Shown here one piece after another: positions 1 to 63,786 of a stretch of DNA of 64,000 nt. The DNA lies in the NCBI RefSeq assembly GCF_001625215.2, contig NC_030383.2, forward strand, positions 45,628,380 to 45,692,379. The letters are read 5' to 3'. The notes beneath the pieces were generated by a model. It made no database searches, was not told the DNA's origin, and saw only the letters and a program-made list of their open reading frames with translations. The DNA is from Daucus carota subsp. sativus (lineage: Eukaryota > Streptophyta > Magnoliopsida > Apiales > Apiaceae). Both the position numbers and the translations under genes were made by a program. Every line of letters starts with the position of its first letter. Position 1 is the first letter of the stretch.

Positions 1-195
1 CCAAGTGATAGTATATGTGTGGTGCCTGATGTCTAAAGGCTTATGCAATAATGCAAGTAGTGCACTGAACTCAACATCAACTATTCATCCTCTCGTTCTG
101 CATTATTAGATATCGATTGTTGATTATCTATGAAATCTAATGAATTGAATAAAGAAGCCGCCGGAATGAAGTCAAAACAATACTGCTTGAACTTG

Positions 196-204
196 TATTT
201 ATAT
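196..204 (+). promoter_or_regulatory. Probable TATA box of the P450 gene
   Basis: The sequence tatttatat lies 77 bases before the preferred ATG at 281. A start of transcription about 30 bases downstream would fall after the in-frame ATG at 224, which supports 281 as the real start codon. This is inference from spacing only. Confidence 0.45.
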
Positions 205-280
205 CTTCCTCTCTTCACTCTCCATGCACAACAAGCCATACCAATTTCTAAGGTTAACTTCACCACCTTACTGTAAATTC

Positions 281-1945
281 ATGGATCCATTCCTCCATTC
301 CCCGTTCTATTTAATTTCCAGTCTGTTTGCGTTCTTAGTCTTTATCTTTTTTGTGGTGAAAAGACATAGCACATATGGAAGACAGGGCATAGTCTTGCCT
401 GAAGCTGGTGGCGCATGGCCTTTCATAGGCCATATGCATCTTCTGGGTCCAAATCAGCTGACGCATTATACACTTGGAACCATGGCTGATAAGTATGGAC
501 CAGCTTTCACCATCAAGCTTGGATCTCACAAAGTTATGGTGTTGAGTAACTGGGAAATGGCTAAAGAGTGTTTCCACACTCATGACAAGAATTTTGCAGA
601 AAAGCCGGCTGTTTTGGCCTCTAACCTACTGGGATACAACTCGGCTATGTTTGCTATCGCTCCATATGGCTCTTACTGGCGCAAGATACGAAAGATTGTG
701 TCCCTTGAACTTCTATCCGTTCGACGAATTGAAATGTTAAAGGGCCTACGAGTTTCAGAGGTGCAGACATCAATAAGAGAAGTGTACAAGTTATGGGTCG
801 AGAGTGGTAGTAACAGGCATGGAGTGTTAGTAGATATGAAGCAACTGTTTGCAAATATAACACATAATTTGATAATGGCTATGGTGGCTGGAAAGAGGTA
901 CTACGGAGGTCGTGCTAATGGTAAGGAAGGAGAGGCACAAAAGTTTGAAAAGATGATGAGGAAGTTTGGATATTTATTTGGAGTGTTTTTATTTTCTGAT
1001 TCTATACCCTTTTTGAAATGGCTGGACTCTAGAGCACATAAGCGGGACATGAAGAGAACTGCGCAAGAATTGGATGATTTTATTCAGGGGTGGTTGGAAG
1101 AGCATAAACAGAAGAGGTTAGTGAGAGGAGAGGGACCAGAAGGAGATGAGGATTTTATGGATGTGATGCTAACCATTCTGAATGATGTTGAAATAGCTGG
1201 TTTCAATGCTGATACCATAAATAAGGCTACATCTTTGGTAAGCAATAGTTTCCTGCATCTTATTTGTTGTGCACTTAAGTGTTATGTATGTGATCTTGAT
1301 GTCTTTTGTGCCTTGCAGAACCTTATATTAGCAGGATCTGACTCCACAACGGTGGCTCTAATATGGGCCGTGTGTCTCCTGCTCAACAATCGTCATATTT
1401 TAGACAAGGCACAAGCAGAGCTTGACAATATTGTCGGCAAAGATAGACATGTTGATGAATCAGACATCAAAAACCTTGTTTATCTCCAAGCAATTGTCAA
1501 GGAAACCTTGAGGCTCTGCCCGCCTAGTCCAGTAATTCCTCTCCGTTCTGCAATCAATGATTGCATCATCAAGCCCGGATACAACATATCTGCTGGTACT
1601 CGTGTCATGGTAAACATTTGGAAAATTCACAGAGATGCGAGTGTGTGGTCTGAGCCAAACGAGTACAAGCCAGACAGGTTCTTGACAACTCACAAGGACA
1701 TTGATGTGAAAGGGCGTAACTTTGAGCTCATTCCTTTCGGCTCTGGAAGGAGATCTTGTCCAGGTTCAGCGCTTGCACTACAGTCGTTGCATCTGGCTCT
1801 GGCTAGTTTCATACATTGTTTTGATATGACCAATATATCTAGTGAAGATGTGGACATGACTGAGAGCTTTGGTTTGACAAACTTCAAAGCAACTCCTCTT
1901 CAAGTTTTTCTCTTGCCAAGGCTGCAGCCTGGCTTGTATCTGTAA
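281..1945 (+). CDS. Cytochrome P450, CYP82 family
   Basis: Two exons, 281-1237 and 1319-1945, give 527 residues. The protein has an N-terminal membrane anchor (about residues 3-25), which would place it on the ER facing the cytosol. It then has the EAGGAWPFIGH hinge, an I-helix oxygen-binding motif AGSDST (324-329; the first Thr of the usual AGxDTT is Ser), KETLR of the ExxR K-helix (380-384), PDRF (437-440) and the heme loop FGSGRRSCPG (459-468) with Cys466 as ligand. CYP82 enzymes oxidise terpenoids, phenolics or alkaloids, and the substrate cannot be read from sequence. The 81-base intron (gtaagc...ttgcag) is a multiple of three and lacks in-frame stops, so uncorrected models would add 27 false residues after the DTINKATSL segment. 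The ATG at 281 is chosen because anchor and hinge spacing are typical from there. An in-frame ATG at 224 would add 19 residues. Confidence 0.92.
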   Translation: MDPFLHSPFYLISSLFAFLVFIFFVVKRHSTYGRQGIVLPEAGGAWPFIGHMHLLGPNQLTHYTLGTMADKYGPAFTIKLGSHKVMVLSNWEMAKECFHTHDKNFAEKPAVLASNLLGYNSAMFAIAPYGSYWRKIRKIVSLELLSVRRIEMLKGLRVSEVQTSIREVYKLWVESGSNRHGVLVDMKQLFANITHNLIMAMVAGKRYYGGRANGKEGEAQKFEKMMRKFGYLFGVFLFSDSIPFLKWLDSRAHKRDMKRTAQELDDFIQGWLEEHKQKRLVRGEGPEGDEDFMDVMLTILNDVEIAGFNADTINKATSLVSNSFLHLICCALKCYVCDLDVFCALQNLILAGSDSTTVALIWAVCLLLNNRHILDKAQAELDNIVGKDRHVDESDIKNLVYLQAIVKETLRLCPPSPVIPLRSAINDCIIKPGYNISAGTRVMVNIWKIHRDASVWSEPNEYKPDRFLTTHKDIDVKGRNFELIPFGSGRRSCPGSALALQSLHLALASFIHCFDMTNISSEDVDMTESFGLTNFKATPLQVFLLPRLQPGLYL

Positions 1946-2908
1946 ATTCCAGCCTGCCCCCTATAGCTGGGATAGTGTTTCAAATAAGTCTTTGCTTTCA
2001 GTCATTACTCTGGTAATAATCTTCAAGGAAAGAGCTTGTTATGTTTTAATCTCCAGACACAGTCACAACATCCATCATAGATGCTGTTTGTTTTTTTATA
2101 TCCGTTTCTGCTTTGTAATAGCTCAAGTGTGCTGAAATTTATTATCACACCCCCCTTAAGCTTCCTTTTTTCCTGTAAGAAAAGCTGAATAGCAATTATT
2201 ATCTATTTTACTACAGTTCATATGCTCTTCTGCTTTGGTAAAAAATTGTTTTCTTTTTACCCATTCGAAGAGGTGGCTTGTTTTTTAAGATAACCACATT
2301 TGATAAGTGATTGACTGATAAATGATAATTTATAACTAGGATTGATTAGTTTTTATATGTTGTTGAATAAAAATTATATATATATACAGATTTTGAAAAT
2401 AACAAGTTTAAATAAGAGTTCGTTTATTAAACGACGAGATTAAAAATGAGTCGAATAAAAATGAAAGTGCTTATTCAGCTTATTTGATAAAGTAAATGAT
2501 TATACTATATATTAAGTTCAAAAATGAAATTATATGATATGGTGTCAAATTTTTTATTTTGTCAAGAAAATTAGTGGTAAAAGTGAAGAGATAACGTGGT
2601 GTTTAGTTTTATCTATAAAATTTTAATCAGCTTGTATAATTATATTATTTATTTGCTTATAAATGTTTAGATATAAAATCTAACATCAAATAATATAATA
2701 ATTTAATGAATAAAATTAGTAAAATAATATATATTAATTTTGAAATTAATATAAATTAAATTTCAAAAATTCAAACAAATCGCTAATTTCTACGTATCAG
2801 ATTTTACAAGTCGCAGAGCAAACCAGGCCCACTATCGTACTGATAAGTGATATCCAAACGCGCCTCTATTTGTGAACCCTTGTCCCTGACCTTGAGCCAC
2901 TCACTCTC
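1946..2908. other. P450 3' region and AT-rich intergenic spacer
   Basis: The first 250 bases are probable 3' UTR, T-rich with no other coding signal. The remainder to 2,780 is A/T-rich without an open frame or repeat I recognise. The last 130 bases are the presumed promoter and leader of the RUS gene; no clear TATA box is visible. Confidence 0.5.
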
Positions 2909-5900
2909 ATGCAAATTAACTCGATCCCTGCTTCAAATTCACACTTGCCATGGCCTTCATCAAAAATCCATTATTTTTTCACATCATATAAGCAACTGAA
3001 GCCCCTTTCTTTTTCATTAAAAGCTTCTTCTTTTGAAGCCCAAGACCCAAAACTCACTATTCCGGCACGTCTTCCGGTGACTATTCGCCGGTCCGGCAGT
3101 GTTTTTCAGTATTCATGGGATGGTAATCAGTTAAAGCTGATATCTTTAGATAAAAGATCCTCGCTTTCCTCTTCGTTGGATGATTTTGAAGATGGGTATA
3201 AAAGATTGTTCAAGTTTGTTAGCTTGCCTGTTAGAAACTTTTTTTTGCCCAGGGAAATTAGTGGGAATTATGTAGAATATGTGAAATGGAAGTTTTTGCA
3301 TAGAGTTTTTAGCTCTGCGCTTCAAGTTCTTGCTACTCAGGTTTTAATCTTTTGCACTTTGTAATTAGTTGTTTTTTTGTTTGTGAACTTGTTATATTTG
3401 TTCTTGTTTAGTTTTCGGAAATTTGGGTCTTAAAGTTTTGTTCTTTCATGACTGTTTTTTATTTTTATTGGCAAATTGTAATGTGATGATTATTAGGATT
3501 TTGAATTGGTTACTGCTAGGCAATGTTTAGGGCAATTGGAATTGGGTATGCTCATTCGCTTCCATCTGCTGCCGCCCTCAACTGGGTATTAAAAGATGGT
3601 CTCGGACGCCTTAGTAGATGTATCTACACTGCTTGTTTAGCGTCGGCTTTTGATACTAATCTTAAGGTATATTTAGAGCACTTGTTGGTGATTTAAGAGC
3701 TGTGAAATATAATTTTGTAGAATGTGTTAGAATATCATTTTAAGAGTTTTATCGAATTTATTCTTATCCACTGTTTTTTTTCAAGCGAGTTAGGTTCTCT
3801 ACCTCGGTTGTGTTCAGTTTGAGCGTTGGCCTTGAGTTGTTGACTCCTGCATTTCCTCAGTACTTCCTTCTTCTTGCATCTGTTGCCAATATTGCAAAGC
3901 AAATAAGCCTTGCATGCTACCTAGCAACAAGTGTAAGTTTCTGATGTTATCTACTGCTTTATTCTAAGAAAAACATTAATAAAATGATACTGTATTACAT
4001 GATAAGATATGAACTTATAACTGGTGATATTAATTTTTTACCTCTTTCATATTTTCCTATATATGAAGTTTGTTATTGGGTTTCTGAGAATATTTGTCGT
4101 CTCTGCTTCTGGAGTAATTATTTGTTATAAATGTATAACAGTAAGGTTTGATTTCGCATAATCAACTTGAATCAAACTGTGGATTGAATCTCTGCCATCA
4201 GTTTAAATAATGCCATATCTCATCTAAGATATGTCTGGTATTGCTTAAATTTTACAATTTTTCCAAACTTGGCTAACATGGGTACATCTTTAGGGCTTTA
4301 CTGTCCAGCAATTATAATTGCTATATTAGATGCTGTATTTGTTTTTACTTAATCATGCCAATGATTTACCAGTTACCAAGTCATTTGAGAGTTAGAGATT
4401 GAGTTGGGAAAATTTTATTTTCCCCTTATGTCCAGTTTCTCCTGAAGTTTCATGTATTCTGGTTCAACATCCTAAAGAAAGGTCTAAAAGCTGTCAAATT
4501 GTGTTTGCAGTCTGCTGTTCATCGAAGCTTCGCAATAGCAGACAATCTGGGTGAAGTTTCTGCGAAAGCACAGGTCGTGTATATTTTCTTAGTAAATGCC
4601 CTTTTTATAATGTCGGTTTTAGTTTCTGGGAAGTAAATTTTGGTTTTATTTTCAGATTCAATCCGTGTCATTCGACAATCTTGGTCTTTTGCTAGCTGCA
4701 TCCTTGAATATGTTGTTTAAAAATAGCCCCAGGTTTTCTACTTTTCATCTTAGTTATCATAAACTTGTCAACTCCCTTTGAATGTATTTAATCTCCCCCT
4801 CCCCCTTTCTAGAAAAGCATAAGAAAAGAGATGGTAATTGTTAGGAACATATAGTATCTTTCTTTGCTACAGCATAATTATATAGTATCTTTTTGTCTAT
4901 CTTGAATTGAAAAAAATACATGTGTGTTGCATGTTTATAATTGGCCTGCTAAAAATGCACTTGTAAGTACTTAGTGTTAGCAATGTTTATATAAAAGGTC
5001 ACATGACTAAATAAAAAAAAAATTTAATGTCTTTTAACATTTTGACGTTCTTAAAGATTGCAAGCAGGTTTACCATTTGCTATATATCCAGTATTCACGG
5101 CAATTGACCTTTTTGGAATTTATCAAGGGCTGAAGCATGTCCATCTACAAACTTTGACCAAGGTAGGTCTCATATTTTAGCTTTAACATTGTATCACAGG
5201 ATGACCATGTCTCATCCTTTCATGGTATCATATGCTTGGTTCAGTTAGTAGTATATATTATACTGGTTCACTAATTTTCCCTTTCTGAATTTTAGGATAG
5301 ACTTGAGATTATACTAAATACGTGGATTGAGGTAGGATATATCCCATCACCTGCGGAAGTAAGTAATGCTGAAGGAATTGATTTCTTGTCTAATGGAGGT
5401 GAAATTTCTTTTACCGGGTGTTTGTTGTGGCATTTTTTATACGCCAATATTGGAATCAGCTTTTTACTTAGATTTGCATCAGGCAGGGAACTGTGGAACA
5501 TTAGAATTGGCTGCTTAAATACCAAGAGTCAAATACCAATGCTGTCAATGATGACCGTAAAATCTTTAAAGAATGAAGATTTATACTTTATTTGTATGGA
5601 GATATCTCAACATAAGTTGCTAAGGAAGAATCATGTAAGTATATCGTGTGTGTTTTTGTGTTATGCACTGTGTATGACGAGGTCTCAGAGCTCTCATTTT
5701 ATTTCTGTCGCCAACATAACAGCTAGGTATACTGCTTTGTGTACGTGAAGGGGCACAGACTGCAGATGTTATTCTGGGTTTATTGCAGGTATTAGAATAG
5801 CATTATCTTGTTTTCTTAAACATTTTTTTTATGGGACACAATGACAGGATCTTGAAGAAATGAGGAAACATGATCCAGCTTAGCTTGTTTGTTTATATAG

Positions 5901-9348: not shown

Positions 9349-10528
9349 TTCAAGTCTCGGGTTAAGTAACAACCTCAGGAATCACGCGACTCCAGCAGTT
9401 GTGTTGGGATTTATGGATGCCCACTGTGGCAAGATAAGTAACTTATTTTGGACCTATTAGAAAGAAATTGATTCACTCAGGAGTGCTTCCATTGAATTTA
9501 ATTGCTTTGTGAAATAACCAGTTGCTCTGCCATCGTCATCATATTATGTACTTGTATAACATTAAACTCAGTGTCATTTTGATTTTATTATAATTGAATA
9601 TTGAATATTACGGTTGGTTTTATTGGGGACATGAATATAAACACAAAATATTTTGGAGTTGTGTTACGCATCTTAAATTATGTTCTCAAACGTATTTTTA
9701 AATGACATTACAGATAGATAACTAATTTTAATTATGTGATTGATGTGCATACGGGAAATTCAGTTATTATTAGTGTGAGTTAAACGAAACATACATTTTG
9801 ACATTTAGATTTTAAAAAAAAAAAAATTGTAAAGACACATGACATTTTGTAATATTTTGGGCAATCCACTTGCGTTAAATAAGATATGCCTTCTAAATTA
9901 AGTACGGCTCAAGATAAATGATGCCTTTTAAACTTTACAAATATCCCACCATCGATTTAAGGGAAAAACTGAGCTCAAGTTTTGGGGTGTCACTAGCAAT
10001 AATGTTAGTATTTCTTTTTCTCCATCGTTTGTTTTAGCTAAACAAACGGTGTCTTTTCTTAATAGTGAACCAAAGTAACGCTGGAGTGAAAATTAAAATA
10101 AATATCCATTTGCATATGAATATCAAGTGTGCTTTCCATTATGGATGAGTATCCGATCAATTTGGACCTGGAATGCTATCCTGTTCCTGGTTCTCGAATT
10201 TAAAGTCAAGTTACGAATTTTCTCTAATTTTTTAGATGGGAACTTTTCCTGCTTCTTAATCCCCGTTCTGATCAAAGAATGGGACCCACAAGAATTCGAG
10301 AGATTTATATTTTTAAAATATATATTATGAAAACTTTTTAATAACATGATTTTTACGTACAATTATTCGAAAGAGATCATGTAAAATATTTTTTATTATA
10401 TGTCATATATAAAAATCGCTTCAAATTAATAAAATGAAATATAAAACTAGATTGATTATTATTATTTTACATTATAGTATAAATTAATTTAATCAAAAAA
10501 ATTGTGAGAAAAATTGAAATTTACAAAT
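9349..10528. other. Intergenic, no gene seen
   Basis: 3' flank of the small gene, then AT-rich DNA. A short inverted repeat at 10,023-10,051 (catcgtttgttt ... aaacaaacggtg) could form a hairpin. No open frame with a recognisable product. Confidence 0.4.
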
Positions 10529-12534
10529 TAATACTCTTTATTAATAAGCGAAACCACGTTTCGGTGGAACATCAGAGTACCAAAATTTGATCATCATATA
10601 TTATATTTAATTATTATTATATCATTATTATACTCCTTTTAAAAGTATTATACTCCTATTAAAAGATATAAGACATATATATTGATGAAGACTTTTTTAT
10701 ATAACGATTATTCATGATATAGAATTCTATCCCAATATAACTAAATATTTTAATTTTTAAAACCGAAACGATTTAACTTAGAATTAACTCTATAAAATCC
10801 TTATCACATAAATAGAAATTCTCTATTAAATTTCTATCAAATAAATATAGGGAGTCAACAGAGCTTTTGTGCGGATCTGAGAACATAAAATAAATTAAAT
10901 ATTTAAATAATGAATTTTATTTATTAAACATATATAAGTTATTTAACTTAAAAATTTCTTCAGACTTCTATATTAGTTTGTCATACAAACAACTAATACT
11001 TTTACGTCTAAAAGAACTCCAACTCATATTAGAATTACCTATTCTAACTATAAAACAATTACGGATTAAATATATATAACACAAATTAATTACAAATTAT
11101 AGATTTATCGAACAATTTAACATAGTAATCAACCGTATAGAATTTCTGTCAATTAAATATGAATCAACTCAAATTTCATATCAAATAAATATAAGGAGTC
11201 GGCAGAGTTTTTGTGTGGATATGAGAACATAAATTGTTTTATTGTTGTTTCATTATTTATTATGAATTTTATCTATATAATATATTTAAGTTATATAACT
11301 TAAAAATTTCCTTCGACTTCTATATTAATTTGTCATACAAACAACTACCACTCTGTATGCAAGAACTCCAACCAACCAACATTACACATACCTATTATAA
11401 GTCTAAAACAATTACAATTAAATAACATTACACATATCTATTATGAATCTAAAACAATTACAAATTATTATTATAAATTTTAATTCATTCCGTGCTCTTG
11501 AGAAGTTTGCGATAAAGATGAATAAGGCGGTGGTAACACTAAATTGACAAACATAATCTCGAAGAGAATGAAGTCATTGTTCATATTGCAACATATAGTA
11601 AAAGAATCGAAACACAAGACATCTGTCAATTTGATATAAAATTAGTTTTGAAAAATTAATTAACTTTGTCAAACTACAATATTAGTTTGTCAAACAACTA
11701 CAACACCGCTGTTATATTTACAAGAACTCCAAATATAATTATATATAACGTTTGCCTATTAGATTGATATAACAATTATTACTTAAAATATTGAATTTTA
11801 TTCGAGATTAAAGACGCTATAAACGAACTTATATGTGTTGATCTTGAATATTATTTTCACAATATTAAAATCATCAAAAAATATAATGTTTTGACTAAAA
11901 TAAAACATATTGTTAGAGTTAAGTTCCATAAAGTCCACATTTAATCTGTAGTAAGTACTGGTCATAATCTTTTAGTTTAGTCGTCAATAATATATTTAAG
12001 CATTTAAATTTATATATAATTTACCATCTTTAAGTAGTTTTAAATATAATTATCAATTAATCTTTAACATCTTTCAACTCCAACAATCATTAAGATCATT
12101 ATTCTCTTATGAGTTATATTTTAGAACATATATAGTGTTTAGTGATTTATAAAATAATTGTTTTTTTTATTGCAACGATTATATCATAGAATATAATCTG
12201 CAGATTGTCGGATGTTTACAAATATTATAGACTAAACAAATCAAAATTAAAACGAATAGATTATTTTTAAATAATTTTGGACTCCAATACTCCTTATTTT
12301 GTGAACTCCATAGAACGAGAACTCATATTGTTATGAAATAAATTTAAAATAAGATCAAATTTTAATATAAAATCTTATTTTTAAATAACAATAATTTAAA
12401 TATCATTTAAAAACAATAATTTAAATAATTATAATAAAAACATGATAATGTAATTAAAAAAATATTATCCTTCCAATAAATAATAAGTTTTAAAAATTTA
12501 TTTAAACCCGTGCTTGGCACGGGTCATAAACTAT
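10529..12534 (+). mobile_element. 2-kb non-coding Helitron-like repeat, copy 1
   Basis: This block aligns by eye over its whole length with 61,718-63,786 in the same orientation. Shared landmarks include aaaccacgtttcggtggaac near the left end, gcagagtttttgtgtggata, aacgtttgcc and a shared right end. The right end carries the palindrome acccgtgcttggcacgggt (12,506-12,524) followed by cataaacta, which resembles a Helitron 3' hairpin placed just before a CTRR end. Neither copy encodes a protein of note. The left end is uncertain by about 10 bases. Family assignment to Helitrons is inference from the hairpin and the end sequence of copy 2. Confidence 0.65.
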
Positions 12535-19346: not shown

Positions 19347-19545
19347 TGTTAGAAATCAAACTCTCTCAAGACAGTTAGTAAAACAGCTGCGGATATATCA
19401 TCTTGAAAATATGGTGGGCATAGTTTGTTCATATCTATCGTCAAGCTTTCACACAAGAATATGCACGTATGCGGTAACTATAATAAAGGCATGAACTTAA
19501 TGCCACAAAATAAGGTGGTCAGTACAACTGGAACTTATATGTACG
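19347..19545 (+). repeat. Truncated 5' LTR of the Copia element
   Basis: Matches the first 199 bases of the 3' LTR with about four visible differences. The match stops after tatatgtacg, where the sequence jumps into gag. The LTR promoter region present in the 3' LTR is therefore missing here. Confidence 0.85.
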
Positions 19546-22500
19546 AGGACGAGGAAGACAGTCCTTCAATAGAGGCCAGAATTCTGAAGGCTATCAGCCA
19601 TCTGGTCGTGGTCAAAAATTTAGAAACCGAGGACGAGGCGGATATCAACAACGAGTTGATAAGTCTCAATATCAGTGCTATAACTGTAATAAATATGGTC
19701 ATTTCAGTTATAAGTGTAGAGCACCAAAGGCGGAAGAAAGAATTCATTTTGCAGCAGCAAAAGAAGACAAAGATGTCGGCACTGCTATGTTCCTCACTTA
19801 CAAAGGAGACGAGGAAAGCAAGAAGAATGTTTGGTATCTTGACTCGGGAGCCAGTAATCACATGACTGGTCACAAGGAGTTATTCACGGAGATAGACGAC
19901 ACCATCACTGGAGAAGTTACTTTTGGTGACTCGTCAAAGATTCCAGTCAAAGGAAAAGGTACCGTCACAATCATGTCAAAGAAAGGTGAAAAGAAGTATA
20001 TAAATGATGTTTATTATATTTCTGCTTTGAAAAATAATATTATCAGTCTTGGCCAACTTGTGGAGAAAGGATATAATATACAGATGCAGGACAATTCCCT
20101 CATTATCAGAAATCAAGCCCGGGAATTGATTGCAAATATGGAGATGTCAAAGAATCGTTTGTTTACGCTTGATATGCAAACGAATGTACAGAAGTGCTTA
20201 AAGTCAGTCATTAAAAATGACTCGTGGTTGTGGCATTTGAGATATGGTCATCTTGGTTTTTCTGGCTTGAAATTATTGTCAAAGACAAAAATGGTGGACG
20301 GTTTGCCAGAAATCAACGAACCAGAAAATTTGTGTGAAGCGTGTGTAAAGGGGAAGCAACATCGACAAAGTTTTTCCGTTGGAAAATCATGGAGAGCCAG
20401 GAGGCCATTGGAGATTGTTCATACAGATATTGCTGGTCCATTTGATATCTCATCATTTAGAGGTAATGGATATTACCTAACATTTATTGATGATTTTAGC
20501 AGGAAAAGTTGGGTGTATATCATCAAAGAAAAGTCGGAGGCTCTTGATAAATTCAAGGAGTTCAAAGCACTTGCATAAAAGCAAAATGGTCATTATTTGA
20601 AAGTACTCAGATCAGACAGAGGAGGCGAGTATACTTCAAATCTGTTCAGAAGTTTTTGTAGAGCACATGGAATCAATCATCAATTGACGACGGCCTATAC
20701 TCCTCAACAAAATGGTGTTGCAGAAAGAAAAAATCGCATTATTCTTGACATGGCAAGGAGCATGGTGAAAGCAAAGCACTTGCCGAGAACTTTTTGGGCC
20801 GAAGCCATTTTATGTGCAGTTTATTTGTTGAATCGATGTCCAACAAAAAGTGTCAGAATCAAAACTCCAAATGAAGCATTGAGTGGTAGCAAACCATTAG
20901 TGGGACATCTCAGAATTTTTGGGTGTATTGCATATGCCCATGTCCCAGATCAGAAAAGGAAGAAGTTGGATGATAAAGACGAGAAGTGCATCTTTACCGG
21001 ATATGACAAGAGGCGTAAGGTGTACAGACTCTATAATCCTCTTACGAAAAAATTAACCATTTCTCGAGATGTTGAGTTTGATGAATCTGATTATTGGAGA
21101 TGGAGCGGGGAGGAAAGAAAAGTTGCTGGGTTATTTTTTTAATAATGATGATGATGGCAATGATGATCCCAACATGGAAGCTGACGAGGATGATGCTCAA
21201 ACTCCTCCACAAAGTCCGAATCAACAAACTCCCGCATCACCACCATCTGATTCAAATGGAAGTAGAAGTTCAGGGGGAGCACCAAGAAAAATGCGGAGTC
21301 TGGATAATATCTATGAAGCTACAAGTCCGGTACAAACAACCTTTGATTATTCGTTATTTTGTTTAATGGCTGAAGTGATCCAGTTACATTTGAGGAAGCT
21401 TCTGAAGAAAGCAAATGGAACAAAGCCATGGATGAGGAAATTGGTGCAATTAAAATGAATGATACATGGAAGCTCATAGATCTTCCAGAAGGACACAAAA
21501 CAATTGGTGTCAAATGAGTCTATAAGACAAAGACAAATCAGGATGGTGAAGTGGAGAAATACAAGGCAAGGTTGGTGGCTAAAGGCTACAAGCAGCGATA
21601 TGGCATTGACTATGATGAGGTGATTGCTCCAGTTGCACGAGTTGACACCATCAGACTTCTTACATCAATTGCCGCTCAGAATCAATGGAAGATATTTCAT
21701 ATGGACGTGAAGTCGGCATTTCTAAATGGTTATCTCGAAGAAGAAGTCTACATCGAGCAACCTCCAGGATATGTTCAGAAAGGCCAGGAAGATAAAGTCT
21801 ACCGGCTAAAGAAAGCATTGTACGGCCTAAAACAGGCACCGAGAGCGTGGAACACAAAGGTTGATGAGTACTTTCAGAAGAACGGTTTTGTGAAGAGTCC
21901 ATACGAGCATGCTCTCTACACGAAAACAAATTTAGGAGGAGATATTATAATCGTTTGCTTATACGTGGACGACATGATATTTACCGGAAATAATCCTGGT
22001 ATGTTTGATGATTTTAAGAAAGTTATGACTAATGAATTTGAGATGACAGATATTGGTCAAATGTCATACTTTCTTGGAGTCGAGGTGAAGCAAAGCAAAG
22101 ACGGAATTTTTATGTCTCAAGAAAAATATGCGGAGCAAATTTAAAAAAAAAATCAGAATGGAAGAATGCAAGCCAGTGAGAACGCCAGCAGAAGCAAGCA
22201 TAAAGCTCCGAGTTGATTCAACAAGGGAGTCGGTAAATCCGACATTGTTCAAAAGTTTGGTTAGAAGTCTGAGGTACCTAACTTTTACTCGTCCGGATAT
22301 CATGTATGCAGTCGAATTGGTTAGTAGGTACATGGAGAAGCCGAAGCAAGATCATTTCATGGCGGCTAAAAGAATTTTGAGATATATTAAAGGTACACTT
22401 AATAATGGTTTGTTTTACACGCATTCTCAAGATTCAAAATTAGTTGGCTACTCAGACAGTGATTATGGTGGATATTTGGATGACAAGAAAAGCACATCCG

Positions 22501-22909
22501 GATATGCTTTTCATATTGGCTCAGCGATATTTTCATGGTCATCAAAGAAGCAACAAACAGTCGCTCTCTCAACATGTGAGGCAGAATATATTGCAGCAGC
22601 AGGAACAACATGTCAAGCTATTTGGTTAAGCTATATATTGGGCGAGTTAAATCTTGCAAAAGAAGACCCGGTTAAAATTTACGTGGATAATAGATCTGCT
22701 ATTTCACTTGCGAAAAATCCGGTGTCACACAGTCGAAGCAAGCACATCAATATTAAATATCATTTTCTTCGAGAACAGGTGAACGATAAAAATGTGGAAC
22801 TGGTGCACTGCAGGACGGAAGAAAATCTAGCAGATATTTTCACTAAATCTCTGAAGCCATACGTATTTCAGAAAATGAAAAATAAGCTCGGGATGGTAAA
22901 TCGAGTTTG
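19546..22909 (+). pseudogene. Copia gag-pol remnant
   Basis: Domains in order: a gag C-terminal zinc knuckle of CX2CX4HX4C type (19,676-19,717), aspartic protease with DSGAS (about 19,840), the GAG-pre-integrase and integrase core with DRGGEYTS (about 20,605), reverse transcriptase with YVDDM (about 21,965), and RNase H ending at 22,910. Visible breaks are in-frame stops at 20,576-20,578 and 21,515-21,517, a frameshift at the T run near 21,134-21,140, another near 21,370, and one at the A run near 22,143-22,152. The polyprotein is therefore not translatable as a whole. Confidence 0.9.
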
Positions 22910-22917
22910 AGGGGGAG

Positions 22918-23620
22918 TGTTAGAAATCAAACTCTCTCAAGACAGTTAGTAAAACAGCTGCGGATATATCATCCTGAAAATATGGTGGGCATAGTTTGTT
23001 CATATATATCGTCAAGTTTTCACACAAGAATATGCACGTATGCGGTAACTATAATAAAGGCATGAACTTAATGCCACAAAATAAGGTGGCCAGTACAACT
23101 GGAACTTATATGTACGTGTACAAGTAAACCCAGAGGTGGTGGCCGGTCTTTGTTCAAAACCTGAAATTATGGTGGGTAGAAGACGTGTGTAATAAATTAT
23201 ATATCAAAGTTCAAAGAGCGGTGTATTGAAAAAGTTAATATCTAGGAACATGCATGCAGGCTAAAAGAGTTCACACAGGTTTTCTTATGTGACAGTAGTA
23301 TGAAAGAAATGATAACAGGTGAGTAGCTCTAGGAAATAAGGTAGGCCAGCAAGCTTGTATTAAATAGGATGCATGTCACAGATGATGTTAGTGTGTATTT
23401 TGAAGCCTATAAATAAGGCTCATCTATTAGTATTGTAATATATCGAGTGAACTATTTGTGAAAGGAAAAGTGCAGAAGCTATGTGTCTTGTACTGGAGAA
23501 AAAGGCTGTAGCCTGTTTTATATAAAATAGAGTCGTATTCCTGTTAAGTGAAACAAATAAGGGCGGTTGAGTTTATCTTTAAAGTAATATCTTGTTTTAA
23601 AGCTCATTACGTTTCCAACA
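22918..23620 (+). repeat. Full 3' LTR of the Copia element (703 bp)
   Basis: Begins tgttagaaatcaaac just after the polypurine tract and ends gtttccaaca before the target duplication. A TATA-like cctataaataagg near 23,406 is the likely LTR promoter and reads toward 23,620, that is into the disrupted HD-Zip homeodomain exon in antisense direction. Confidence 0.9.
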
Positions 23621-47553: not shown

Positions 47554-49385
47554 TCAATATATATATATATATAAAGGAGGATGCGGGCGTCTCCAGGACT
47601 GTTCGATTCAGTCTTCTGATTTTTCTCAAATTTTGGAGAGAAATATATAATTATAATTAAAAAAAATCAGGTTTAAGAATTCTTAAGATAATATAGTTCT
47701 TTTCTTAACGAATTCTAAAGCTAATACTCTAGAATATAAAAAAAAATCATAAAAATAATACGATTCTTTCTCGTATTTAGCAATCATAAAAGTAATATAA
47801 TTCTTATTTTTAATTACCAGCTTACTAACGGAGTCGACCACGATAGCTCCGCATCATCATTCTATAAGGCCACGGTTACGGGAGTCTCTGCAAACTTTCC
47901 GTTTAATTTTTCTAATTTTTCGAGAGTCACTGGACTTACATGGCGTTAAGGTTACGGGAGTCTCTACAAACTTTCCGTTTAATTTTTCTAATTTTTTGAG
48001 AGAAAATATGTAAAATAACTAAAAAATAGTAATTGTAAAATACATATAATTCTAAGTAGTTAAGAAATAAGAATTCTAACAAAAATATAATAACTAAAAT
48101 CTATGAAATTCTAAGTAGTTAATAAATAGGAATCTTAAAAAAAAAAAGATAATTCTAAACAATTAAGAAATATGAATCTTAAAGAAAAATATAATAGCTA
48201 AAATCTATGAAATTGGATATATTTAACTAATTATAATTATAATTTTATCATAATGTAAATAATTCTTGATTACTATTGAGTTTGAAGGGAGTGCGGCCCA
48301 AATTAATTTTTATCTAAATAATTATAAATTTTTTATTAGTATTATGTTTGACGGGAAAGCGGCTAAAATAATTTTTTATCTAAGTTATAATATAATTTTT
48401 TTCTAAAACGGGCCGACAGCTTAAAATAATTTTTTATCCAATTATAATCTTTAACTTTATCATAATTATAATAAATTTTATTAGTAGTGTGTTTGACGGT
48501 AGGCCGATTCAAACTAATATCTATATTATAATTTTTTGTTGTTAGTATTGTGTTTGACAAGAGAGCGGCTCAAACTAATTTTTATCTATATTATTATATT
48601 TAATTTTATCATAATTATAATAGTTCTTGATTAATATTGTCTTTGATGAGAGGGCGGGTCAAATAATTTTTATTATTAGTATTGTATTTTACATGAGGGC
48701 CACTTAAACAAATTTTTACGTTAAATTATAATTTTTTTTATTAATGATAGATTTAACGGGAGCATGGCTCAAAATAATTTTTATGCAATTATAATAATAA
48801 TTCGTATCAAAATTATTAAAAAAGATTCTTGATTAATAGTATTGTGTTTCAGGGGAGGGCGGCCCAAATTAATCTTTATCATAAATTTTCTATTAGTATT
48901 ATGTTTGACGAGAAAATGGTTAAAACAATTTTTCATCTAAGTTATAATGTATTTTTTTATTAAAATGAAACCACGGCTTAAAATAATTTTTATCCGATTA
49001 TAATCTTTAACTTTATCATAATTATAATAATTTTTCATTAGTATTGTGTTTGACGGGCTACTCAAACTAATATCTAAATTATAATTTTTTGTAATTAGTA
49101 TTGTGTTTGACAAGAGACTGGGTCAAACTAATTTTTATCTATATTATTATATTTAATTTTATCATAATTATAATAATTATTGATTAATATTATCTTTGAT
49201 GGGAGGGCGGTTTAAACAATTTTTTTTATTAGTATTGTATTTGACAAGAGGGCCTAATATTTTTTATTAATAATATGTTTCACGGTAACATGACTCAAAA
49301 TAACTTTTACGCAATTATAATACTTTCGTGTCAAAATTTATAAAAAATTCATAACGCCGCCACGAAGCGCGGCTTTATTCACTAG
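47554..49385 (+). mobile_element. Non-autonomous Helitron with internal repeat array
   Basis: Begins a|tcaatatatatatatatat then aaaggaggatgcgggcg, and ends with the hairpin ccgccacgaagcgcgg followed by ctttattcactag at 49,385 with t beyond. 1,832 bp, no rep/helicase. A head-like segment (ggttacgggagtctctncaaac) is duplicated at 47,876 and 47,948. Same family as the 27,730-28,930 element by its ends. Confidence 0.75.
48255..49330 (+). repeat. Higher-order repeat inside the Helitron
   Basis: A unit of roughly 65-95 bp built on ttagtattgtgtttgacggg ... gcggctcaaa ... aatttttatct recurs about a dozen times. On top of that a block of about 560 bp is duplicated. Anchors are gcggcccaaattaat at 48,293 and 48,859, tattagtattatgtttgac at 48,334 and 48,891, and aatctttaactttatc at 48,446 and 49,002. 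Confidence 0.75.
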
Positions 49386-56485: not shown

Positions 56486-57179
56486 CTAGCCTATAATCCG
56501 TGCGAAGCACGGGCGACCATATTATTTCTATTTTTTTATTTGTAAGCTTAATATCATTTTTTGTGTTTTATTATTAATTTAATATAATGGTATTAAATTA
56601 TATTAACTGATTGGTTATATTCACTTTTGAAAGTTTGGCTTGTACAATATTTTTCTCTATTATAAAATATTTTTAAGCATAATAAAAAAGTACAATGGCA
56701 ATACGATTTAGCAATAACATGAACAGCTTAATGATTGATCACAATCATTTACAAACCATCCAAATGTAAAAATATCTCTAATTCTTACTCACATTATGGT
56801 CAATTTCAGATACATAAATGGTGCAACGAATATTTTCATCTCTTTGAGACTTAAAAGTTTTCCACTTATCCGCTTCCTTCCCCGGTTGAAGTTAGTTCTT
56901 CTCTATTGAAACAAAATTCGAAAACTAAAATATAAATCATATTGACATTGTATAAAAAATACTTTTAATCACCGGAAAGGCCTCAGCAATCTCATGCACT
57001 TTAATCAGAACCATGGAAGAAATCTCCTCCGCAGCAAATTGTTTATCCTCACCTTTGTAAGATACAGTACTAAAAAATTTCACTATATTTCAATATAATT
57101 CAGATCCTAAAAAATTAAAAAATAATTGCTTTTTTTAAGTAGATGAGGACACTTAACTCACAAAACAGAGTCAAATGAA

Positions 57180-57891
57180 TGCCACTTCATTCTTCAAGTC
57201 CTGTTCAAAACTTGGCAAGGGAGCATTCCTTTGGGAGGTTGTTTTCAAATCTCTTATTATCTTGGCAATAATCATATATGAGATGATATTTTCTCACCAA
57301 CTTGAACCACCTTCTTTGTGTCTGGCTTAATGACCTAAACCTCCTTATGCTATCAATTTGTCAAGCTTTCTCTGCAAAACCTTGCATTCCCTTTCCACAC
57401 ACAAGCATCAATCTGGTAGTTCCTGAATGAGGTATTGAAGGGACCCTTTGACCAATTAATACGTTCTGCTATCCTATAGGCTCACTTTAATGCTCATTGG
57501 TTGCCACATTGGATATTCAACTCCCTTGTCAGCATAGTTCCTGCATGTCCTTATGGGAACAAAATCCACCATGAACCTACACCGAGTACAAATAAATAGA
57601 TTAGTACAAATAAATAGATTGCTTATATGCTTGTGCATCATTTTCTGAGATTATACATATAATCAAAAAAAAATTCATCGTTTGAAAATTCACTTACACA
57701 ATTTGGTAAAGATTCCAGAGGATGGAGTATGTTTGAAAATCCTTCGTCGGGTCAAACCACAAATATATCCTTTCTTCTCTATTGTCAAAGCCATCAGCAA
57801 AAATATTGGTCTGAAGTATGTAAGGCTGCCCGTACACATTTCCAAGTAACTCAAAATCTATTTCATCGTGATTAGGCTGATCACATGTAAG
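57180..57891 (-). pseudogene. Xyloglucan endotransglucosylase/hydrolase (XTH) fragment
   Basis: Minus-strand exon 57,891-57,698 has a gcag acceptor and a gtaagt donor and is intact. It contains the GH16 catalytic motif [11 protein letters not shown], then [20 protein letters not shown] and [16 protein letters not shown]. The next exon starts at 57,576 (FMVDFVPIRTCRNY, then GVEYPMWQPMSI). It then decays: stops and frame changes break it, but YHLIYDYCQDNKRF and LPKECSL near its end still match XTH C-termini. Exon 1 with the signal peptide is absent. XTHs cut and rejoin wall xyloglucan; this copy cannot be secreted or complete. Confidence 0.85.
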
Positions 57892-58786
57892 CTGCAATCA
57901 CAAAGACATTCTTATCTATATTTCTCAAATTGTGAGTTCTTAGGGGACATGTCACAATGTCCATCATGTGATTTCATCAGTAATGTGCATATGCTAGCTT
58001 AACATGATGTACTACATTCACTGTTATATTACATATATTGTGTATGTAGAAACATGGCCAATTAAGAAGGTGAGTTGCAGGATTTATTTGTCATCTGCAA
58101 TCTAGGAGTAATTAGCTTTACTCAAATATAAATACACAAACTCTCCCACCTTGTGAGGTATAAGGGCTTCAGTATTATCATAGCCTATTATCTCTGTAGC
58201 CAAATTATATGTCCATCACATTTGATGTTTCGTCTGCTCCCGCTCCTAATGATGCACACTCTGTCCGGACAACCACTCACACCTAAGTTGTTATATAATT
58301 GACCTGGTCTTCTCGATTTGGATCAACTTTAGCTGCCGAGTGAGAATTGGGTACTTGGGAGATTCTCCTAAAAAATCAGTTGAGATGCGGATAACTCTTT
58401 TTTTCGGACCTGGCTTGCGAATTCCATGACATTGGAATATTAGTTATACATTTGTAGTTATATGGGCTATGGACAGTAGAGAACCTTCAGGACCATGTCA
58501 AGAAATTTACTCAGATTTGGGTGATTAGTCCCTGTATCTATGAATTAGCACCAAATAACAGTAATACTTGGACCTATTTACTATGATACTATATATGAGA
58601 GAAAATCTACAGAATACCAATCACACATCAGAAAATATAGAAAACACTTGAAACTTCAAACTTCTTGCTGGACGCAGCATTGACACCAAAACATGATAGG
58701 ATTTCAGCCTTTAGACTAAATACCACGAAACTAATCAACTTACAACCAGTTTATAAAATTACATTCCTTCGCAATCATTGCATAGA

Positions 58787-59041
58787 TATTAAAGACCAAA
58801 ATATGAGATCTTCATTGCACATAGATAAAAAGATGCTGCAAAGCACATTTACTTGAATTTCACCACATACATATTAAAGACCAAGAAATGAGATCTTCAT
58901 TGCATATAGATAAAAAGATGCTGCAAAGCACATTTACCTGAATTTCACCACATACAAATTAAAGACCAAGATATGAGATCTTCATTGCATATAGATAAAA
59001 AGATGCTGGCAAGCATATTTACCTGAATTTCTCACATATGC
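58787..59041 (+). repeat. Three-copy tandem repeat, 85-bp unit
   Basis: Each unit contains attaaagacca, atgagatcttcattgca, tagataaaaagatgctg and atttacctgaatttc. Copies start at about 58,787, 58,872 and 58,957 and differ by a few bases. It lies inside the Helitron, between the two captured gene pieces. Confidence 0.9.
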
Positions 59042-59819
59042 AAGATGTACTGACCACACAAGAATTTATCACCTGAACATAAAATCAGAAAAAAAATAAA
59101 ATTATCGTGCTACTGCGATCTAGAAAGTATAGAGGAGACCCCTGCTACCTGAATAGCAAAAAGAACAGCAATAAATAAATAAAAATGAGCAATGAGTTCT
59201 GCACTTCAGTTATAGCATTATATAAAATACTGCTGCAGAAAATAAAATTAAAGAAAGTTAAGGAGTAAAAGACCTATAAGAAATTATCAACCAGGCTACT
59301 CATAGTGATAAGAACTGAATTCACACCATATAACAACTTCATATTGAGAAGAGAGAAAGCATACCTATTCTAGCGCTCTCGGTTCCACAACTACCCCATC
59401 AGATTCTCTATCTCCAAACTCAACATCTACAAACTCAACAGTCATGATATATTATTCCTTGCTTCAGTCTTTCTCAATTTTATTAGATCATCTTCAGCAC
59501 TCTTTATAGGCATACATGGGTGCATTGAGAATAACTAACCTACTCCATTATCAATCATATTCTTCCCTAGGTCCCCTGTACCACCAAATGAAGACCCCCG
59601 ATCAAAACCTCCGTGTATATATACAATCTAACCAATGAAAACAAAAGGACTTGTAAAATGGAATTTAAAAAGTCTTTTAACCGTAACAATCAATAAACTG
59701 GAAAAATAGAGTCCCTTATTAACTTAAAAATATTTTAATTTTAATTCCAAGCCACCAAAATGAGCAAAGCACAGAGGAGCCTAATAATTATAAAATGAAA
59801 TGGAGAGATTTCAGAGATG

Positions 59820-59866
59820 ACACGTCATCCTCTGAAGATCCTCCTTTATATATATATAAGATAAGA
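59820..59866 (-). mobile_element. Second Helitron-like 5' terminus
   Basis: Minus strand: a|tcttatcttatatatatata then aaaggaggatcttc. This matches the 5' head style (tatataaaggagga) of the elements at 27,730 and 47,554. No matching ccgccgc-type 3' end is seen nearby, so it may be a leftover head or a nested copy. Confidence 0.5.
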
Positions 59867-60965
59867 TTAATATTTCTACAACATAGGACATTTGCACCAG
59901 ATCCAATAGGTCAGAAGGTAACATAATACCTGTAAAACTTGAACACCAGTCCATTAACAGCCTCGTACATAAGCCAACAACTTTAATTTGTCAATTATTT
60001 TTAATCATAGATATCTGTCATATATAAATACATATTGAAAAAAAGATCACAAACCTTTATCACCAAAACAAACTTTATGAAATTCTCTGCAGACCAACCA
60101 AAACAAAGCATACAGTATACAACTAACAAAGCATACAGTATAGGTAACAATCTTTTAATGAATACACGAGTTTCAAGTTAATTTGGTATAGTTATTAACA
60201 AAAAGCAGTACCATTTTATGAATGTGGATATATTGGTGCTCTAATACAGCCGAGTGAGGGTCTGAACCCACTCATACATCCAAGAAAAAAAAAATTAGCA
60301 CAAAAGAGTGTTACAAGTTTTTAAACTCATTTTCCAGATTGATAACCTTCTCTTGTGACGCCAAAGATTCAAGTAATAGCAGCAGGATCAGAAGAAGAAT
60401 TAGGCAACAACTCTCTGTGACTCTCTCCGATCACATAATCAATTTCCAGCTGCTGGAATACTAACAATACAGTTCATAAATTAACAGCAGCTGAACAAAT
60501 CATTCACTCGCAGATGTTCGCAAAGTGTGAGATATATCCAATATTAATTATAAAAATATGTATATGAAATGCCTTGAAAATCAAAATGATATAAACAACA
60601 AAGATGAAATTATCAATCCTTATAAGCAACTAAATTACTGAACTTAAGATAAATAAACAATGGATAACAAAGAAAGCTAGTTATTTAGAACACAGAGAAC
60701 TCATATTCATATATATGTATCCCGAATATACCTTCAGGGGAGATGAATTATGTAGTGTTCTTGAGAGATGGAATGAAAAGTAGCACAGGAGCTCGCTGAG
60801 ATGAAGAGAGAGACAGCAGGCTATGGTGATAGGCTCTTGTAATTCTACTCTGTCCCTCAATCATTTTTAAAAAATCAGATAAATGGTGAGGTTTTTTTCG
60901 TGAAGGAGCCGACAAAATCGATGGATTGATACTATAGACTACAGGTTGCAGAGAACAGTACTTAC

Positions 60966-61222
60966 TTCATGAATACCTGCAGAGAAACAAAAAGCAAATG
61001 CAATTAGGGACGAGTTTAAGTGAGTAAAGGTAAGAATGAGGAGAGACAGAGATAGAATTACCGAAGTGAGAATAGGCGAAGTAATAGTCGGCGCTTGTCT
61101 GGTCGGCGCCGATGATAGAGCCGTCGAGGCCACACATGGCAGAATCCTCTTCGAGAATGGAGCTACCTGTTGTGGTTCCTTCCAATTCATTGTCCTCCTC
61201 GTCCTCAAATTTTATTTTTGAG
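60966..61222 (-). pseudogene. Protein arginine methyltransferase (PRMT1-like) N-terminal fragment
   Basis: The minus strand encodes KIKFEDEEDNELEG, then LEEDSAMCG, and SADYYFAYSHFG, followed by a donor (gtaatt) near 61,061. A second exon begins at 60,976 with the codons for IHE (G-IHE across the junction) and is cut at 60,966. Plant PRMT1 proteins carry [21 protein letters not shown] here, so the fragment lacks one residue (DS became A) and the catalytic domain is absent. No start ATG is present in frame. It is a captured 5' piece, with an intron retained. Confidence 0.75.
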
Positions 61223-61717
61223 AGCTTCTATGAAGTATTCATATGATCATATCCTAGGGTTTATCTGTGTTCAGGGTTTTCGATTCCAATTGAGAGCCGC
61301 TCTTGTTTGTCAAATGTTTTATGTAGTATTTGGTTTTTCTTCAAAGTCGATCTCTGTTGGGAATAGGAGACGTAGTCTAATGATGACAAAAAAATAGGAC
61401 GAAAAATATAGTACGAAACCAAAAAACGTGAACAAAAAGTACGACTACAAATTATACCCATGTTGACTTATTATAGTATAGTATAGATTACTTAAAAATT
61501 ATTATTTTTAATTAAATTAAAATAAAAATAATCACATATCCTATATCTTATTTATATTTTTTAAAACTAAAACAATATATATGTGTGTGTGAGAGAGATT
61601 TTATTATGTTATTAATGTGATTCTTACGTTAATTATTACTATTTTATATAGATATTATGTTATAGATAGTTTAATATATTATTGACTGGAATCAGACTTT
61701 CGAACTTTACAAATCAA

Positions 61718-63786
61718 TCAATACCCTTTATTAATAAGTGAAACCACGTTTCGGTGGAACATCAGTACTAGAGTACCAAAATTTATAGAGTTAATTTATA
61801 AAAAAGTCCTAATCAATATATGTCTTATATCTTTTAATCAATATATGTATTATACTTCTATTAAAAGATATAAGACATATATTGATTAGGATTTTTTTAC
61901 ATAACGATTATTCATGATATAGAATTCAATCCCAATATAACTAAATATTATAATTTTTAAAACCGAAACAATTTAACTTAGAAATTAACTCTATAAAATC
62001 CTTATCACATAAATATGAATTCTCTATAAAATTTCTATCAAATATATACAGGGAGTCAACAGAGCTTTTGTGCGGATCTGAGAACATAATATAAATTAAA
62101 TATTTAAATAATGAATTTTATTCATAAAACATATTTAAGTTAATTAACTTAAAAATTCCTTCAAACTTCTATATTAGTTTGTCATACAAACAACTAATAC
62201 TCTTACGTCTAAAAGAACTCCAACCCACATTAGAATTACATATTCTAACTCTAAAACAATTACGGATTAAATATACGTAACACATATATAACTCTAAATT
62301 AATTACAAATCATAGATTTATCGAACAATTTGACATAGGAATTAACCGTATAAAATTTCTATCAATTAAATATGAATCAACTCAATAAAATTTATATCAA
62401 ATAAATATAAGAAGTCGGCAGAGTTTTTGTGTGGATATGAGAACATAAAATAAAAAAGAGGCTAAAAAACTCTATTATTGTTTTGTTTTATTGTTGTTTC
62501 ATTATTTATTGTGAATTTTATCTATAAAATATATTTAAGTTATATAACTTAAAAATTTCTTTCGACTTCTATATTAATTTGTCATACAAACAACTACCGC
62601 TCCTAGATGTGCAAGAACTTCAACCAACCAACATTACACATACATATTATAAGTCTTAAACAATTACAAATTAAATAACATTTCACATACCTATTATAAA
62701 TCTAAAATGATTACAAATTAATAATATAAATTTTAATTCATTCTGTGCTCTTTAGAAGATTGCGATAAAGATGAATAAGGCAGCGGTAACACTGACTTGA
62801 TCACAAACGGAAACTCGAAGAGAATGAAGTCATTGTCCATATTGCAACATATAATAATAAAATGAAAACACAGGACATCCGTCAATTTGATATCAAATTA
62901 ATTTTGGAAAGTTAATTAACTTTGTCAAACTACAATATTAGTTTGTCAAACAATTACAACACCACTGTTGTATTTACAAGAACTCCAATTATAATTATAT
63001 ATAACGTTTGCCCATTAGATTTGAATATAACAATTACGACTTAAAATTTTAAATTTTATTCGAGATTAAAGACGCTATAAACAAACTTATATGTGTTGAT
63101 CTTGAATATTATTTTCACAATTTAAAAATCATCAACCAATATAATGATTTTACTAAAATAAAACATATTGTTAGAGTTAAGTTCCATAAAGTCCACATTT
63201 AAGCTGTAGTAAATACCGGTCATAATCTTTTAGTTTAGTCGTAAATAATATTTTTAATTAGTCAAATTTATATATAATTTATTATCTTTAAGTAGTTTTA
63301 AATTTAATTATCAATTAATCATTAACATCTTTCAATCTCCAACAATCATTAAGATCATTATTCTCTTATGAGTTATATTTTAGAACATATATAGTGTTTA
63401 GTGATTTATAAAATAATTGTTTTATTTTTTGATTGCAACGATCATATCGTATAATATAATCTGCATATTGTCGGATGTTTACAAATATTGTAGACTAAAC
63501 AAATTAAAATTAAAACGAATATATTATTTTTAAATAATCTTGGACTCCAATACTCCTTATTTTGTGAACTCCATAGAATGGGGACCCATATTGTTATGAA
63601 TTACATTTAAAATAAGATTAAATTTTAATATATAGAAAGTCTTATTTTTGAATAACAATAATTTAAATATCATTTAAAAATAATAATTTAAATAATTATA
63701 ATAAAATATGATAATGTAATTAAAAAATATATTATCTTTCCAATAAATAATAAATTTTAAAATTTTTTTAAACCCGCATCAACTAA
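61718..63786 (+). mobile_element. 2-kb non-coding Helitron-like repeat, copy 2
   Basis: Full-length partner of 10,529-12,534. It begins a|tcaataccctttattaataag and ends catcaactaa|t, that is TC...CTAA with A and T flanks, as expected for a Helitron. The 14 bases tgcttggcacgggt present before cat in copy 1 are missing here, so the terminal hairpin is lost. It also has an extra perfect 30-bp inverted repeat (61,807-61,836 and 61,862-61,891) and a 20-30 base insertion near 62,450. No protein. Confidence 0.65.

What the first reader, a model, noticed from the sequence alone, without database searches (positions are those of the whole stretch)
56486..61487. Helitron that captured XTH and PRMT1 gene pieces
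Seen: an A|TC start at 61,487, a GC hairpin and CTAG|T end at 56,486, and inside on the same strand a PRMT1 N-terminus followed by XTH exons 2 and 3, all with splice borders. The XTH exon still has the full catalytic HDEIDFE motif. PRMT lacks its start ATG and is cut after IHE. This is a clear second case of gene capture in the same 64 kb.
Basis: partly seen in the sequence, partly recalled or inferred. Interest (0 to 1): 0.75.

Follow-up and report, generated by a model that had tools for sequence, protein, structure and literature searches.

The report
Carrot Helitron carrying many gene pieces
This is a jumping DNA element of the Helitron type, probably in carrot, that has picked up broken pieces of at least five ordinary plant genes from several chromosomes and exists as at least three near-identical copies; it is a clear and young example of a known process.

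Summary
Window 56486-61487 (minus strand) is one complete 5,002-bp Helitron without a long reading frame of its own: A|TC start, GC hairpin, CTAG|T end. Both ends belong to a large family (1,345 and 1,455 genome hits, controls 9 and 0). Full-length copies lie on C8 and C9, 0.1% apart and about 0.6% from the window copy. For both, relatives without the insert run through the joined flanks with no target duplication. The window copy's own empty site was not found.

PRMT1-type and XTH donors lie on C3 and C1; introns came along. Further cargo: fimbrin-like, receptor-kinase intron, Pumilio-like, HSP70 and an unnamed C5 piece, plus the 5' end of a second Helitron family. Two details were wrong: the PRMT ATG is present (stop at codon 5), and the piece continues past IHE into intron.

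Beyond the common ends, a C7 relative shares the 5' part and a C4 relative the 3' part, so the element is a mosaic built in steps, as described in maize. Ordinary in kind, well resolved in detail.

The parts
56486..61487 (-). complete non-autonomous Helitron, 5,002 bp (el 1-5002; window = 61488 - el)
   Evidence: two further full-length copies, C9 and C8; longest stop-to-stop frame on the element strand is 90 aa
61413..61487 (-). family 5' end, starts TCTATACTATACTATAATAAG after host A
   Evidence: 686+659 genome hits, control 6+3; 8 of 8 opened copies (the first eight listed, all on C1) preceded by A
60840..61332 (-). captured PRMT1-type gene piece: 5' UTR, exon 1 (61062-61242, ATG present, stop at codon 5), intron 1, micro-exon 2 (60966-60976, IHE), part of intron 2
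   Evidence: donor gene C3:42.11 Mb, L017; a donor exon matches PRMT8, PRMT3 and PRMT1 chains at E 3e-19 to about 1e-17
60340..60839 (-). stretch of unknown origin, shared with the C7 element
   Evidence: el 1-1148 aligns to L018 at 85%; its own genome search did not complete
60144..60344 (-). piece of a fimbrin-like (CH-domain) gene or of a repeat that bears it
   Evidence: five other loci at 89-97%; CH domain downstream in L040, E 2e-4, below the Pfam cut-off
60017..60128 (-). short piece, source C7:22.63 Mb or relatives
   Evidence: 89.7% over 116 bp (L048), 96% over 76 bp (L051)
59867..59943 (-). piece of a receptor-kinase intron
   Evidence: 88% to L052, between two exons with LRR and kinase domains
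59777..59866 (-). internal 5' end of a second Helitron family (A|TCTTATCTTATATATATATAAAGGAGG...)
   Evidence: 29 of the 49 matches lie on this stretch (40 of 73 candidates scored); 5 of 5 relatives read start A|TCT; the match to the receptor-kinase donor stops at this A|T. That it is a Helitron 5' end is inferred; its 3' end was not identified
59359..59615 (-). piece of a Pumilio-like gene, donor C2:41.17 Mb
   Evidence: 81% to L046; name from recalled motifs, no Pfam hit for the donor frame
57966..59297 (-). piece of an unnamed C5 donor at about 46.96 Mb; holds an 85-bp tandem, three copies here
   Evidence: 80-91% to L031; tandem three copies in window, C9 and C8, two in C4
57150..57921 (-). 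captured XTH gene piece: end of intron 1, exon 2 (57697-57891, HDEIDFE), intron 2, exon 3 (57205-57577, to stop codon), 3' UTR
   Evidence: donor C1:45.75 Mb, L030: 93.3% of aligned bases, BLAST 86.2% with gaps; Glyco_hydro_16 3e-19 and XET_C 1e-15
56976..57068 (-). HSP70 coding piece
   Evidence: E 3.9e-6 to HSP70 chains; Pfam HSP70 0.0055, below cut-off; donor not located
56746..56965 (-). stretch shared with other loci, probably family members; holds an RRM-like peptide (tentative, recalled motif)
   Evidence: no Pfam hit
56486..56671 (-). family 3' end with hairpin 56498-56512 and CTAG, followed by host T

Best explanation
A non-autonomous Helitron that gathered gene pieces as genomic DNA in several steps and was then copied as one unit. 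Shown: the ends, family membership, two further full-length copies, A-T insertion without target duplication (for the C8 and C9 copies), donor loci on different chromosomes, introns kept, and relatives that, beyond the common ends, share only the 5' part (C7) or only the 3' part (C4). Inferred: movement by a Rep/helicase protein supplied by an autonomous relative; cargo gained by read-through past a 3' end, by fusion of neighbouring or nested Helitrons, or by repair filler. The 5' part shared with C7 and the 3' part shared with C4, with the 5' end of a second Helitron family between them, favour fusion or exchange between Helitrons for at least one step.
For: Ends 1,345 and 1,455 hits, controls 9 and 0. 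C8-C9: 5 substitutions in 4,979 bp; window 31 of 4,977 from C9 and 33 of 4,978 from C8. Empty sites: 31 of the 70 matches other than the copy's own flanks cross the C8 joint, 11 of them with at least 26 bp before it; three were read. 38 of the 38 such matches cross the C9 joint; three were read. In each search 40 candidates were scored, of 398 and 759. Donor identities and introns. C7 relative: same 5' end, same PRMT stop, different downstream cargo with lipoxygenase (3e-60) and weakly supported HSP90 pieces. C4 relative: A|TC and CTAG|T, different 5' cargo, same XTH and HSP70 3' part.
Against: No empty site for the window copy: 0 of the 40 matches other than its own flanks cross the joint (40 of 130 candidates scored). 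At the C8 site the relatives carry roughly 0.5 kb more sequence 30 bp before the joint, a separate difference: 38 matches end there. No autonomous relative shown: the search for PF14214 did not complete (14 tries). No 3' end found for the C7 relative in about 17.7 kb downstream. The C4 relative's hairpin is imperfect and was missed by the strict scan. Which capture route acted at each step is not shown.
Confidence: 0.97

Rival explanations
1. The XTH and PRMT pieces are remnants of neighbouring native genes or an old segmental duplication, with Helitron-like ends by chance.
For: The pieces keep splice borders and introns, as genomic duplicates would.
Against: Donors lie on different chromosomes; the ends belong to a family of over a thousand hits each; three copies share their ends but not their flanks; empty sites for two of three copies.
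Confidence: 0.01
2. A Pack-MULE, Pack-CACTA or other terminal-inverted-repeat element carried the pieces.
For: Such elements also carry gene pieces in plants (PMC13317346, passages seen).
Against: No inverted repeats at the two ends (direct reading of the ends) and no target duplication at the C8 and C9 sites.
Confidence: 0.01
3. Two Helitrons, nested or side by side, rather than one: one with PRMT, another starting at 59866 with Pumilio-like to XTH cargo.
For: An internal 5' end of a second family sits at 59866, where the receptor-kinase match stops.
Against: Three copies are held as one 5.0-kb unit, and the receptor-kinase donor sequence does not resume further on in the element. It may still describe an ancestral step, which the main explanation allows.
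Confidence: 0.05

Closest known systems
Maize Helitrons with several gene pieces gained stepwise (Dong et al. 2011, PMC3288121; passages seen, parts of the abstract among them)
   Same: TC and CTRR ends, hairpin near the 3' end, insertion between A and T, several gene pieces from different chromosomes, partial sharing of pieces between related elements, nested Helitrons giving extra internal ends
   Different: Other species; here one element is tied to donor loci, near-identical full copies and empty sites; the internal end seen here is a 5' end of another family
Carrot Helitrons in the DH1 v3 genome paper (PMC10581907; passages seen)
   Same: Same probable species; a Helitron insertion that disrupts a gene is reported there
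   Different: The passages seen do not describe gene capture by carrot Helitrons

Membership tests
Helitron (plant, non-autonomous) | 5' TC and 3' CTRR | tested here: met
   C9 copy CTAG, C8 copy CTAA
Helitron (plant, non-autonomous) | 16-20 bp palindrome, 10-12 bp before the 3' end | tested here: met
   17-nt hairpin 11 nt before the end in C9 and C8; 15-nt hairpin 12 nt before the end in the window, just under the stated length; criterion as worded in PMC3288121
Helitron (plant, non-autonomous) | insertion between A and T without target duplication | tested here: met
   C8 and C9 empty sites; for the window copy only the flanking A and T, no empty site
Helitron (plant, non-autonomous) | multi-copy family with the same ends | tested here: met
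   4 of 8 opened 5' copies had a hairpin and CTAG|T within 332-765 bp
Helitron (plant, non-autonomous) | autonomous Rep/helicase partner in the genome | not tested
   the search for PF14214 did not complete; the element itself has no long frame
Pack-MULE / Pack-CACTA | terminal inverted repeats and target duplication | tested here: not met
Processed (retroposed) pseudogene | introns absent | tested here: not met
   introns present in PRMT and XTH pieces

The most novel reading that the evidence does not exclude
Members of this Helitron family trade cargo blocks with each other and with a second Helitron family, so that the window element is a fusion of a PRMT-bearing 5' part (as on C7) and an XTH-bearing 3' part (as on C4), joined near an internal 5' end of the second family. 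Even the fimbrin-like piece may have come from other Helitrons rather than from the gene: for two of its five other copies a family 3' end lies on the same strand, 5.4 and 4.9 kb from the start of the piece; no 5' end was seen within 1.5 kb of those copies.
Probability: 0.45. Interest if true: 0.5.

Novelty: new member of a known kind. Interest (0 to 1): 0.37.

Why it matters
Multi-gene capture by Helitrons is known from maize (PMC3288121, passages). Here one element can be taken apart into donors, copies, part-sharing relatives and empty sites within a single genome, and the C8 and C9 copies differ by only 0.1%. That makes it a good test case for how Helitrons build up multi-gene cargo. It changes no general picture.

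Tried and rejected
Native neighbour genes and segmental duplication: rejected (donors on C3 and C1, family ends, differing flanks, empty sites for two of three copies). Inverted-repeat elements and retroposed copies: rejected. An empty site for the window copy: looked for, not found; its 3' flank is a repeat that starts 28 bp past the joint. A 3' end for the C7 relative: not found in C7:2747000-2766999; a family 3' end exists at C7:2771277, but another family 5' end lies between, at about C7:2766265. Identity of the C5 donor: not reached; one of its frames was scanned without a convincing hit. Donors of the HSP70 and RRM-like pieces: not located; one search scored only 40 of 979 candidates. 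A single PRMT capture for window and C7 was not argued from shared differences alone, since changes in the gene give the same pattern; the shared junction, stop codon and downstream stretch carry that point.

Literature: searches for Helitron with carrot (32 papers, 10 listed), with Daucus carota (19, 15 listed), with Apiaceae and captur (7, all listed) and with XTH and captured (1). None of the listed titles or abstract starts describes gene capture by carrot Helitrons; of these papers only passages of PMC10581907 were opened. This does not show that it is unpublished.

Full report
The element. The window lies in a 441.1-Mb genome of 11 contigs, at C3 45628380-45692379. Carrot is inferred: the published DH1 v3 assembly has nine chromosomes, 440.7 Mb and a longest sequence of 64.5 Mb (passages of PMC10581907), and C3 here is 64.56 Mb. 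On the minus strand, 61487 to 56486 reads A|TC...CTAG|T with a hairpin 12 nt before the end. The 5' 21-mer is found 1,345 times with up to 2 mismatches, reversed control 9; the 3' 26-mer 1,455 times with up to 3 mismatches, control 0. These counts are sites, not whole elements. Of eight opened 5' copies (the first eight listed, all on C1 and without mismatch), 8 of 8 follow an A, and 4 of 8 have a hairpin and CTAG|T 332-765 bp downstream.

Copies and insertion. The element is found whole on C9 and C8, BLAST identity 98.8% with gaps. Window against C9: 31 substitutions in 4,977 aligned bases; against C8: 33 in 4,978; C9 against C8: 5 in 4,979; gaps of 8, 10 and 5 bp set C9 and C8 apart from the window copy. 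With recalled rates of 6.5e-9 to 1.3e-8 per site and year this is roughly 0.04-0.08 million years for C8-C9 and 0.24-0.51 for the window split (arithmetic); a rough guide only. Joined flanks of the C8 copy met 72 matches: 2 its own flanks, 38 that end 30 bp before the joint, 1 that starts after it, and 31 that cross it, 11 of these with at least 26 bp before it. The relatives have roughly 0.5 kb more sequence at that point 30 bp before the joint, a difference separate from the Helitron. Three of the crossing ones were read and are continuous at the joint. Joined flanks of the C9 copy met 40 matches: 2 own flanks and 38 that cross the joint, the best over all 460 bases at 85%; three were read. 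For the window copy 0 of 40 other matches cross. Each of these searches scored 40 candidates, of 398, 759 and 130.

PRMT and XTH. The PRMT piece (60840-61332) matches a gene on C3 at 42.11 Mb: 93.2% of aligned bases, exon 1 94.5%, intron 1 94.1% (BLAST 88.4% with gaps). A donor exon matches PRMT8, PRMT3 and PRMT1 chains at E 3e-19 to about 1e-17, and 2 of 4 donor frames scanned match PRMT_C, one other only general methyltransferase models and one nothing. The window peptide itself has no Pfam hit and no significant match among solved structures. The piece has its ATG; codon 5 is TAG where the gene has CAG, and the C7 relative shares the TAG. The XTH piece (57150-57921) matches a gene on C1 at 45.75 Mb: 93.3% of aligned bases, exon 2 94.4%, intron 2 91.7%, exon 3 93.6% (BLAST 86.2% with gaps). 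Two of 3 donor frames scanned hit Glyco_hydro_16 and XET_C above the Pfam cut-offs; the N-terminal frame had no hit. The window exon 2 frame is open with HDEIDFE; exon 3 is broken by stops and frame changes. Neither piece can give a working enzyme as it stands (inference).

More cargo. Also present: a fimbrin-like piece, a short C7 piece, a receptor-kinase intron piece, a Pumilio-like piece (name recalled), a 1.3-kb piece of an unnamed C5 donor, an HSP70 piece (E 3.9e-6) and a tentative RRM-like peptide. For the six pieces whose gene direction could be read (PRMT, fimbrin-like, receptor kinase, Pumilio-like, XTH, HSP70), 6 of 6 run with the element (two-sided p 0.031); the C5 piece, the short C7 piece, the unknown stretch and the RRM-like peptide were left out of that count. 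An 85-bp unit inside the C5 piece is present three times in the window, C9 and C8 copies and twice on C4. BLAST places all three window units on one stretch of the donor; the motif scan with fixed mismatch limits found none there.

Mosaic history. A C7 element has the same 5' end, the same PRMT junction and the same stretch to el 1148 at 85%, then a lipoxygenase piece (3e-60) and HSP90-like peptides whose Pfam scores lie below the cut-offs; no 3' end was found for it. A C4 element starts A|TC and ends CTAG|T with an imperfect hairpin; after its first 75 bp its cargo differs, and then it holds the window's el 2374-2632 and 3109-5002, XTH and HSP70 included. A C6 locus joins part of the C5 piece to the family 3' region in another order. 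At 59866 the match to the receptor-kinase donor stops at an A|T, and what looks like the 5' end of another Helitron family begins. So the element was put together in several steps, and at least one step probably joined two Helitrons (inference).

Known or new. Stepwise capture, pieces from different chromosomes and internal ends from nested Helitrons are described for maize (PMC3288121, passages). A 2026 review counts captured gene sequences in maize Helitrons among known cases (PMC13317346, passages). This is a new member of a known kind, with unusually complete evidence for one element.

Noticed in passing
10516-12510 and 61702-63776: Two direct copies of a 2-kb repeat, 88% alike; the first runs to a hairpin at 12507-12523 of the kind seen at Helitron 3' ends. 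Possibly another Helitron-like family next to the element's 5' flank.
   Followed up: partly
19347-23127: Copia-like retrotransposon frames (label recalled) between 210-bp repeats that are 96% alike.
   Followed up: no
61799-61899: Two 40-bp arms, 98% complementary with 21 bp between, a fold-back or MITE-like repeat.
   Followed up: no
48219-49347: A+T-rich tandem-like repeats of about 80 bp and longer units.
   Followed up: no
L018 (C7:2747000-2756999): Related element with PRMT, lipoxygenase (Pfam 3e-60) and weakly supported HSP90 pieces, and no 3' end found.
   Followed up: partly
L029 (C4:29916000-29925999): Related element whose 5' cargo includes a peptide that resembles a STRUBBELIG-type receptor (recalled, no Pfam hit).
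   Followed up: no
L048 2318-3115 (-): Long open frame of possible retroelement origin about 0.7 kb from the short C7 piece; not examined.
   Followed up: no
C9:3965208-3965646: Best empty site of the C9 copy, 85% over all 460 bases, about 22 kb from that copy; a local duplication is possible.
   Followed up: partly
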